Assembly (NCBI GenBank): GCA_020846025.1
Contig: JADLER010000066.1
Location: 1-39,254 of the forward strand
DNA: 39,254 bases
Reading direction: 5' to 3'
Source of the DNA: Bacteroidia bacterium
Lineage (GTDB): Bacteria > Bacteroidota > Bacteroidia > B-17B0 > Aurantibacillaceae
The translations under genes were made by a program, and so were the position numbers. The notes beneath the pieces are model-generated. The model made no database searches. It had not been told where the DNA came from and saw only the letters and a program-made list of their open reading frames with translations. Shown in pieces: positions 35,496 to 38,360 of the stretch (positions within the stretch are counted from its first letter, which is position 1; every line of letters begins with the position of its first letter).

Positions 35496-37400
35496 TTGAA
35501 TTTTCATTACGATATTATAGTAGTTGGTGCTGGTCATGCAGGTTGTGAGGCAGCAGCAGCAGCGGCAAACATGGGCTCAAAAGTGTTGCTTTTAACCATG
35601 AATATGCAAACCATTGCTCAAATGAGCTGTAATCCAGCCATGGGCGGCATTGCCAAAGGCCAAATTGTTCGTGAGATTGATGCCTTAGGAGGATATAGCG
35701 GAATAGTTTCTGATAAATCAGCAATACAGTTCAGAATGTTGAACAGAAGTAAAGGTCCGGCTATGTGGAGTCCTCGTACTCAAAACGACAGAATGTTATT
35801 TGCTGCTACCTGGAGAGAAATGCTAGAACAAACACCTAATGTTGATTTTTGGCAGGATATGTGTCGCCAATTAATCATCTCTAAAGATGGTAAACGGGTT
35901 GAGGGTGTTGTTACAGGAATGGGTATTGAGTTTAAAGCTAAAGCAGTTGTTTTAACCAACGGTACATTTTTAAATGGCTTAATCCATATTGGTGAGAAAC
36001 AATTAGGTGGTGGAAGAAGCGGAGAATCAGCGAGTTACGGAATAACTGAACAATTAGTATCACTTGGTTTTGAGAGTGGGCGAATGAAAACTGGAACACC
36101 ACCCCGTGTAGATGGTAGAACATTAGATTACTCTAAAATGGAGGTTCAAGAAGGAGACGAGGCTATTGATAAGTTTTCATATTTAGAAAACACCTCCCCT
36201 TTTTATGCGGATTCTAAAGGAGATAAATCAAAACTAAAAAAACAAATACCCTGTCATATTACTTATACTAATAAAGATGTTCATGAGGTACTAAAAACAG
36301 GTTTTGAAAAATCACCCATGTTTACGGGTAGAATTCAAGGCCTTGGACCAAGATATTGCCCAAGTATTGAGGATAAGATCAATCGCTTTTCTGAAAGAGA
36401 AAGACATCAAATTTTTGTAGAACCTGAGGGCTGGAATACTGTTGAAATTTATGTAAACGGGTTTTCTACATCCTTACCCGAAGAAGTTCAATATAAAGCC
36501 CTACAATTAATCCCAGGATTTGAAAAAGCTAAAATGTTTCGACCGGGTTATGCTATTGAGTATGATTATTTCCCCCCTACCCAATTAAATTTAACACTTG
36601 AAACTAGACTGGTTGAAAATTTATATTTTGCCGGACAAATTAATGGCACTACCGGTTATGAAGAAGCAGCTTGTCAAGGTCAGATGGCAGGAATAAACGC
36701 ACACCTTAAAATAAATGAGAAGGATCCTTTTGTGTTATTAAGACATCAAGCATATATAGGTGTTTTAATAGATGATTTAGTTACAAAAGGAACCGAAGAA
36801 CCTTACCGTATGTTTACATCTCGTTCCGAGTATCGCTTGTTGTTACGTCAGGATAATGCAGATATTCGTTTAACAGCTTTATCAAATCAAATAGGATTAG
36901 CATCAGAGCAAAGATATGTAGTGGTTCAAAATAAAATAAGACACGCACAACAAATCATACAGTATTTTAAAAATAATAGTGCCGAGCCAGAACAAGCAAA
37001 TCCATATTTAGATAGTATAAACTCTGCCCCTCTTACACAAAAGTGGCGTTATTTTAATGTGCTTTCTCGCCCCGATGTTTCAATCTTAGGTTTGGCTAAA
37101 GTTTGCCCCGATGTTTCAAATTTAATCAGTGAGTTTAGTGACGAAACAATACAGCAAGCAGAAATATTAATGAAATATGAAGGTTATATTGAACGCGAAA
37201 AAGAAAATGCCGATAGAATGATTAAGTTAGAGAATTTTAAACTAAAATCTGATTTTGATTATAAATCAATTCCTAGTTTGTCTTTAGAAGCTAGAGATAA
37301 ACTTTCTAAACTTAAACCAAGCACAATCGGTCAAGCTAGCCGAATTTCTGGAATTAACCCGGCAGATATTTCGGTTTTATTAGTACATTTGGGAAGATAA
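35496..37400 (+). CDS. mnmG: tRNA uridine-5-carboxymethylaminomethyl(34) synthesis enzyme MnmG (GidA)
   Basis: This 634-residue FAD enzyme, with MnmE, modifies the wobble uridine of several tRNAs. Family motifs are the FAD fold VVGAGHAGCEAAAAAANMG, MSCNPAMGGIAKG, IGEKQLGGGRSGESASYGI, FAGQINGTTGYEEAACQG and FTSRSEYRLLLRQDNADIRLT, with the C-terminal helical RNA-binding domain. The start is TTG 35496: the frame is closed upstream by a TAG before any ATG, and the first in-frame ATG would remove the Rossmann glycines. mnmG frequently lies near the chromosomal origin. A parS site begins 8 nt past its stop. Confidence 0.96.
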   Translation: MNFHYDIIVVGAGHAGCEAAAAAANMGSKVLLLTMNMQTIAQMSCNPAMGGIAKGQIVREIDALGGYSGIVSDKSAIQFRMLNRSKGPAMWSPRTQNDRMLFAATWREMLEQTPNVDFWQDMCRQLIISKDGKRVEGVVTGMGIEFKAKAVVLTNGTFLNGLIHIGEKQLGGGRSGESASYGITEQLVSLGFESGRMKTGTPPRVDGRTLDYSKMEVQEGDEAIDKFSYLENTSPFYADSKGDKSKLKKQIPCHITYTNKDVHEVLKTGFEKSPMFTGRIQGLGPRYCPSIEDKINRFSERERHQIFVEPEGWNTVEIYVNGFSTSLPEEVQYKALQLIPGFEKAKMFRPGYAIEYDYFPPTQLNLTLETRLVENLYFAGQINGTTGYEEAACQGQMAGINAHLKINEKDPFVLLRHQAYIGVLIDDLVTKGTEEPYRMFTSRSEYRLLLRQDNADIRLTALSNQIGLASEQRYVVVQNKIRHAQQIIQYFKNNSAEPEQANPYLDSINSAPLTQKWRYFNVLSRPDVSILGLAKVCPDVSNLISEFSDETIQQAEILMKYEGYIEREKENADRMIKLENFKLKSDFDYKSIPSLSLEARDKLSKLKPSTIGQASRISGINPADISVLLVHLGR

Positions 37401-37408
37401 TTAATAAA

Positions 37409-37424
37409 TGTTTCACGTGGAACG
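37409..37424. other. parS-like ParB-binding site 1
   Basis: The + strand reads tgtttcacgtggaacg, which matches 15 of 16 bases of the reverse complement of the bacterial parS consensus TGTTCCACGTGAAACA. It lies in the mnmG to methyltransferase intergenic space. Confidence 0.85.
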
Positions 37425-37456: not shown

Positions 37457-38341
37457 ATGTTATCAATTCATAACTGCATTGTGTGTGGCTCCACCCAATT
37501 CGAACCTTTTCTATCGTGTAAAGACTATACGGTTAGTCAAGAAGTTTTCCAATTAGTTTCTTGTAAATCTTGTGGATTTAAGTTTACCAATCCTCGACCT
37601 GAAGATGCCGTAATTGGAAATTATTATAAAGCCGAATCTTATGTGTCGCATACAAACACTAAAAAGGGATTAATTAATAAATTGTATCACAGTGTAAGAA
37701 ACTACACGCTTAAACAAAAAGTAAAACTAATTAACTCATATGTTTCACGTGGAACAATTTTAGATTACGGTTGTGGGACCGGCATGTTTTTAAAGGCTTG
37801 TGTAAATAATGGCTGGAGTGGGTTTGGAATGGAGCCAGATAACGAAGCCCGAGAAATAGCCAAGGGTAATTGTACAAACGTCTTTTCAGATAAATCACAA
37901 CTCCTATCAAATATAAGTGATATCAAATTTAATGCTATTACATTGTGGCATGTTTTAGAACATGTAACCGATATGAAGGATACTTTATCCTTTTTTAAAA
38001 ATAAGCTGTGTTCTAATGGTGTTTTAATTATTGCTGTTCCTAATCACTTGTCTTATGATGCAAAGCATTATCAAGCTTATTGGGCGGCTTATGATGTGCC
38101 CCGACATATTCATCATTTTGATATAAGTTCAATGACAGCATTATTAAAGAATTATGGATTTAAACTCATTGAGACGAAAGGAATGAAGTTTGATAGTTTT
38201 TATGTAAGCATGTTAAGCGAGAAGTATAAGACAGGAAAAATGAATCTTTTAAGAGCATTCTACACAGGGTTAATTTCTAATTTAAAGGCAAAAGATAGTA
38301 CCGAATACTCAAGTACTATTTATGTTTTCAAACATCAATAA
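37457..38341 (+). CDS. Class I SAM-dependent methyltransferase with N-terminal zinc ribbon
   Basis: This 294-residue cytosolic protein has a putative zinc ribbon at residues 7-39 with two CxxC pairs (Cys7/Cys10 and Cys36/Cys39: CIVC and CKSC), followed by GFKFTNPRP. A class I methyltransferase domain follows, with SAM motif I TILDYGCGTGMFLKAC (from ~100) and motif II-IV segments (FNAITLWHVLEHV). The HVLEH segment is typical of Methyltransf_23-type enzymes, often acting on sugars or polyketide-like acceptors; the substrate is unknown. Residues 95-100 (YVSRGT) are encoded by an exact parS sequence. The gene is followed by a third parS site and a terminator. Confidence 0.88.
   Translation: MLSIHNCIVCGSTQFEPFLSCKDYTVSQEVFQLVSCKSCGFKFTNPRPEDAVIGNYYKAESYVSHTNTKKGLINKLYHSVRNYTLKQKVKLINSYVSRGTILDYGCGTGMFLKACVNNGWSGFGMEPDNEAREIAKGNCTNVFSDKSQLLSNISDIKFNAITLWHVLEHVTDMKDTLSFFKNKLCSNGVLIIAVPNHLSYDAKHYQAYWAAYDVPRHIHHFDISSMTALLKNYGFKLIETKGMKFDSFYVSMLSEKYKTGKMNLLRAFYTGLISNLKAKDSTEYSSTIYVFKHQ
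37741..37756. other. Exact parS site 2, inside the methyltransferase coding sequence
   Basis: The sequence tgtttcacgtggaaca is the perfect reverse complement of the 16-bp parS consensus TGTTCCACGTGAAACA. It spans codons 95-100 of the methyltransferase gene. Confidence 0.93.
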
Positions 38342-38344
38342 AAA

Positions 38345-38360
38345 GGTTCCACGTGAAACT
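38345..38360. other. parS-like ParB-binding site 3
   Basis: The + strand reads ggttccacgtgaaact, matching 14 of 16 bases of TGTTCCACGTGAAACA; only the outer bases differ. It lies 3 nt beyond the methyltransferase stop codon and has the opposite orientation to sites 1 and 2. Confidence 0.8.

What the first reader, a model, noticed from the sequence alone, without database searches (positions are those of the whole stretch)
37741..37756. Exact parS consensus embedded in a protein-coding sequence
The perfect parS sequence encodes Tyr-Val-Ser-Arg-Gly-Thr just before SAM motif I of the methyltransferase. The codons must satisfy both ParB binding and protein sequence, so synonymous positions here should be unusually conserved in relatives.
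Basis: partly seen in the sequence, partly recalled or inferred. Interest (0 to 1): 0.6.

Follow-up and report, generated by a model that had tools for sequence, protein, structure and literature searches.

The report
Chromosome-segregation site inside a methyltransferase gene
A short DNA tag that bacteria use to pull copies of their chromosome apart sits inside a protein-coding gene, and for a whole bacterial family it has kept not only the synonymous codons but the amino acids frozen at that spot.

Summary
Window 37741-37756 is a parS site (TGTTTCACGTGGAACA; minus strand TGTTCCACGTGAAACA) covering the last base of codon 95 and codons 96-100 of a class I SAM methyltransferase gene next to mnmG. 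It is one of only three such sites in the 3.2-Mb genome, all within 951 bp, and the genome carries one parA-parB pair elsewhere. In 147 non-redundant orthologues, 60 of 76 from the same family keep the site at the same codons. Codons 96-99 had 0, 1, 1 and 0 synonymous changes, against a minimum of 14 and median of 22 in 65 other conserved 4/6-fold columns. I add that the DNA appears to dictate the peptide: none of 87 orthologues without the site has VSRG there. They have varied, often Lys-rich residues in a predicted loop before motif I. In a closed relative the cluster coincides with the GC-skew origin, 0.95 Mb from dnaA. Intragenic parS sites are already known (nine of ten in Pseudomonas aeruginosa). 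This is a real new member of a known kind, notable for a centromere overriding protein sequence. ParB binding was not tested.

The parts
37741..37756 (.). Intragenic parS site TGTTTCACGTGGAACA (third base of codon 95 plus codons 96-100 of the methyltransferase gene)
   Evidence: position conserved in 60 of 76 family orthologues; lowest-change 15-nt window of the gene
37409..37424 (.). parS site between mnmG and the methyltransferase gene, TGTTTCACGTGGAACG
   Evidence: a site in this gap recurs in most family loci (56 strict sites among 76 loci)
38345..38360 (.). parS site just after the methyltransferase stop codon, GGTTCCACGTGAAACT
   Evidence: recurs just after the stop in many family members
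37457..38341 (+). Class I SAM-dependent methyltransferase gene (Methyltransf_23, 294 aa) hosting the site; VSRGT lies in the predicted loop between helix 72-93 and strand 100-104
35496..37400 (+). mnmG (gidA), the syntenic neighbour; parS sites flank mnmG across sampled Bacteroidia

Best explanation
The 16-mer is a chromosomal parS (bacterial centromere) site, one of a cluster of three at the mnmG-methyltransferase locus, which lies at the replication origin (shown by GC skew in a relative). The host's single ParB (encoded elsewhere beside ParA) is expected to bind the palindrome as a dimer, load as a CTP-dependent clamp, spread over the locus and hand the origin region to ParA and SMC for segregation. 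Because this copy lies inside a gene, selection for ParB binding fixes all but the last of its bases. Codons 96-99 and the third base of codon 95 cannot vary even synonymously, and the encoded peptide V-S-R-G-T is itself a by-product of the DNA site, tolerated because it falls in a variable loop before SAM motif I. Shown here: sequence, clustering, position-specific conservation, peptide covariation with the site, origin coincidence in a relative, and ParB-type specificity residues. Inferred: actual ParB binding, spreading and a segregation role.
For: Only three sites in the genome, within 951 bp. 57 of 60 relatives carry the motif, in clusters wherever several sites are listed. 60 of 76 family orthologues keep the internal site at the same codons, 51 with an exact 14-mer. 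Synonymous changes 0/1/1/0 against a minimum of 14 and median of 22 elsewhere; the lowest 15-nt window of the gene is exactly the site, 13 changes against a median of 167. Among 38 representatives under 75% aa identity, base 1 of the 16-mer is always T although codon 95 encodes Y, H, N or F, whereas base 16 is free. 0 of 87 orthologues without the site encode VSRG. Divergent versions change amino acids but keep the outer arms: VPHGT = GTTCCACATGGAAC, VPCGT = GTTCCATGTGGAAC. One lineage that lost the site has a new one 64 nt downstream in another reading phase, and two distantly related lineages carry a parS at codons 26-30 (GTT TCA CGT GAA ACA). ParA and ParB genes are adjacent; ParB has Arg and Gly at the positions equivalent to R173 and G201 that contact parS, not Noc's Gln and Arg (PMC7383237). 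In the single-contig relative G060 the GC-skew origin fits 925-975 kb and the parS cluster is at 953-954 kb.
Against: No ParB-binding or segregation data exist for this organism. The neighbouring sites deviate from the full 16-mer by 2-3 bases. Some family members lack the internal site, so it is dispensable when other sites are near. The split into bearers and non-bearers is defined by the site itself, so peptide conservation among bearers is partly built in. The non-circular points are the absence of VSRG with other codons and the codon-level contrast with other columns.
Confidence: 0.93

Rival explanations
1. The conservation is a protein-level constraint: VSRGT is needed by the methyltransferase and the codons are merely preferred ones.
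For: G99 and T100 precede motif I, and Gly99 is also common in orthologues without the site.
Against: TCA and CGT are minority codons (15% each); all four codons together have probability about 0.004, yet 52 of 53 VSRG orthologues use them. Motif I residues, conserved in the protein, change codons freely (20-27 synonymous changes at G105, G107 and G109). Orthologues without the site use other residues. The site's palindrome also occurs in adjacent non-coding DNA.
Confidence: 0.02
2. The conserved stretch is another DNA or RNA element (transcription-factor operator, RNA structure, translational pause), or its main role is ParB-mediated silencing of the methyltransferase rather than segregation.
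For: Sites flank and sit inside the same gene. In P. aeruginosa ParB represses genes next to intergenic parS3 and parS4 (PMC5521831).
Against: The motif equals the known parS consensus, coincides with the GC-skew origin, and recurs at different places around mnmG in relatives, including in other reading phases, so it is not an RNA or codon signal of one gene. In P. aeruginosa genes next to intragenic parS1 and parS2 were not upregulated without ParB.
Confidence: 0.04
3. Chance match in AT-rich DNA.
For: None beyond the shortness of the motif.
Against: 3 matches against 0.22 expected in the window; all three genome-wide sites fall in 951 bp; conserved across genera.
Confidence: 0.01

Closest known systems
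Chromosomal parS of the ParABS system (Bacillus subtilis/Caulobacter type, TGTTNCACGTGAAACA)
   Same: Same 16-bp palindrome, clustered near the origin; one ParA-ParB pair with parS-type specificity residues
   Different: The parA-parB pair is not beside the parS cluster, and dnaA is 0.95 Mb from the cluster in G060
Intragenic parS sites of Pseudomonas aeruginosa (nine of ten within coding sequences) and Corynebacterium glutamicum parS1 in trpCF
   Same: parS embedded in an ordinary protein-coding gene (PMC4368675; PMC7083940)
   Different: Here the embedded position is conserved across several genera and is shown to constrain both codons and residues; I found no such analysis in the papers searched, but Livny et al. 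2007, the main parS survey, was not held

Membership tests
Chromosomal parS site | Matches the 16-bp palindromic consensus | tested here: met
   1 mismatch to the strict form, exact to the degenerate form on the minus strand
Chromosomal parS site | Rare in the genome and clustered | tested here: met
   3 sites within 951 bp, none elsewhere at that stringency
Chromosomal parS site | Near the replication origin | tested here: met
   In relative G060 the GC-skew origin fits 925-975 kb and the parS cluster is at 953-954 kb; 0 of 2000 permutations. Not testable in the fragmented own genome
Chromosomal parS site | Host encodes ParA and a parS-type ParB | tested here: met
   Adjacent genes on contig C29; Arg and Gly at the positions equivalent to 173 and 201
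Chromosomal parS site | Evolutionarily conserved as DNA | tested here: met
Chromosomal parS site | Bound by ParB in vivo or in vitro | not testable with these tools
   Needs ChIP-seq, footprinting or binding kinetics
Chromosomal parS site | Required for segregation | not testable with these tools
   Needs genetics in a cultured relative

The most novel reading that the evidence does not exclude
A centromere site gained inside a gene has dictated the amino-acid sequence of an enzyme across a whole bacterial family: the DNA site, not protein function, fixed a five-residue loop, and amino-acid replacements within it follow the ParB-tolerated positions of the motif.
Probability: 0.7. Interest if true: 0.6.

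Novelty: new member of a known kind. Interest (0 to 1): 0.48.

Why it matters
It is a clean natural example of one DNA stretch serving two codes, with DNA binding winning over both codon choice and amino-acid choice. The conserved footprint (bases 1-15 nearly fixed, base 16 free) gives an evolutionary readout of ParB specificity in Bacteroidota, a phylum for which I found little ParABS work, and marks the origin where dnaA does not. It also warns that residue conservation in an enzyme can reflect DNA-level rather than protein-level selection.

Tried and rejected
Livny et al. 2007 was not held. Paper searches for parS in Bacteroidetes/Flavobacterium and for intragenic parS with codon constraint gave no prior description of this case. 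A first alignment call failed because one orthologue, L080, has a stop codon in the matched stretch. I considered that the divergent parS cores in Tenacibaculum/Polaribacter might track ParB changes, but the residues equivalent to 173 and 201 are unchanged. I first took the Tenacibaculum sites for intragenic (in mnmG); they lie in short frames, apparently intergenic.

Full report
Observation. Window 37741-37756 reads TGTTTCACGTGGAACA and lies in frame inside ORF 37457-38341. That ORF is a 294-aa SAM-dependent methyltransferase (Methyltransf_23, E = 3.9e-26) downstream of mnmG (35496-37400). On the minus strand it reads TGTTCCACGTGAAACA, one base from TGTTTCACGTGAAACA. Two sister sites lie at 37409-37424, after the mnmG stop, and at 38345-38360, after the methyltransferase stop. 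The window holds 3 matches with up to 3 mismatches against 0.22 expected. GTTNCACGTGNAAC occurs only at these three places in the genome.

I collected orthologues by protein search in named genomes and in 87 genomes of the same family, took further loci, and codon-aligned 147 non-redundant genes. Of 76 from the same family, 60 keep GTTTCACGTGGAAC with at most two mismatches at the same codons, 51 exactly. Bearers share on average 61% amino acids, and only 46% of codons are the same where the amino acid is the same, so synonymous sites are well scrambled. At codons 96-99 the same-codon fractions are 1.00, 0.96, 0.96 and 1.00; the best other conserved column with 3-fold or higher degeneracy reaches 0.62. 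On a protein tree built without codons 95-100, synonymous changes at codons 96-99 number 0, 1, 1 and 0; in 65 other conserved 4- or 6-fold columns the minimum is 14 and the median 22. The least-changing 15-nt window of the whole gene is exactly the site (13 changes; median 167; best non-overlapping window 62).

The footprint. Among 38 representatives under 75% amino-acid identity, bases 1-4, 6 and 10-15 of the 16-mer are invariant, base 5 is T/C (one G), bases 7-9 vary in one or two sequences, and base 16 is free. Base 1 stays T although codon 95 encodes Tyr, His, Asn or Phe. Constraint therefore follows the DNA site, not codon boundaries.

The peptide follows the DNA. None of 87 orthologues without the site has VSRG there. 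They carry varied, often Lys-rich residues (LKSGK, TEAKN, PQKGK). Of 53 genes with VSRG, 52 use GTT TCA CGT GGA, although codon usage predicts about 0.4%. Where the peptide deviates, the palindrome's outer arms usually stay: VPHGT = GTTCCACATGGAAC, VPCGT = GTTCCATGTGGAAC, VPRGT = GTTCCTCGTGGAAC. One family member that lost the site (L161) has GTTCCACGTGGAAC 64 nt further on in another reading phase, and two distantly related genes (L050, L178) have a different in-frame parS at codons 26-30 encoding VSRET. A structure model (mean pLDDT 90.7) puts residues 94-99 in the loop between helix 72-93 and strand 100-104, which explains tolerance. Caution: bearers are defined by the site, so VSRG conservation within bearers is partly circular; the absence of VSRG with other codons is not.

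System context. The genome has one ParB, directly after a ParA gene, on another contig. Aligned to solved ParB and Noc chains it has Arg and Gly at the positions equivalent to R173 and G201 that contact parS, where Noc has Gln and Arg (PMC7383237). In the single-contig relative G060, sixty 20-kb samples place the negative-to-positive GC-skew switch at 925-975 kb (none of 2000 permutations as strong). Its three parS sites are at 953-954 kb, its dnaA is at 0.4 kb and its parB at 2.68 Mb. That the origin need not lie at dnaA was noted for gut bacteria (PMC10197239). In other sampled Bacteroidia the sites mostly flank mnmG, so the mnmG locus looks like an old parS locus into which, in this family, one site became fixed within the neighbouring gene (inference).

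Known or new. Intragenic parS sites are known: nine of ten in P. aeruginosa (PMC4368675) and one in C. glutamicum trpCF (PMC7083940). What I did not find in the searchable literature is a demonstration that such a site is position-fixed across genera and fixes the residues. The main survey (Livny et al. 2007) was not available, so priority cannot be claimed. ParB binding and a segregation role are inferred, not shown.

Noticed in passing
L082 upstream of the methyltransferase gene (Tenacibaculum adriaticum; genome handle G110:C1:469306-471606): Eight clustered parS-like sites with a non-palindromic core, six of them GTTTCACGAGGAAC, all in one orientation. Other Tenacibaculum use GTTCCATGTGGAAC and Polaribacter GTTCCTCGTGGAAC/GTTCCACGAGGAAC, while ParB keeps Arg and Gly at the positions equivalent to 173 and 201.
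   Followed up: partly
G060 (single contig): parS 953-954 kb, dnaA 0.4 kb, parB 2.68 Mb: The GC-skew origin coincides with parS/mnmG, not with dnaA, which is 0.95 Mb away; a record rotated to start at dnaA mis-marks the origin in this family.
   Followed up: partly
L050 and L178, methyltransferase codons 26-30: Two distantly related orthologues carry an in-frame GTTTCACGTGAAAC at the same, different place in the gene (VSRET); a congener of L178 (L180) lacks it, suggesting independent gains.
   Followed up: partly
L161, methyltransferase offset 348: A lineage that lost the conserved site has GTTCCACGTGGAAC 64 nt downstream in another reading phase, which looks like turnover or replacement of the site.
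   Followed up: partly
G000 contigs C91 and C65: Two DnaA-family matches over the cut-off in the window's own assembly, with 6.4% estimated contamination; one may be a contaminant.
   Followed up: no
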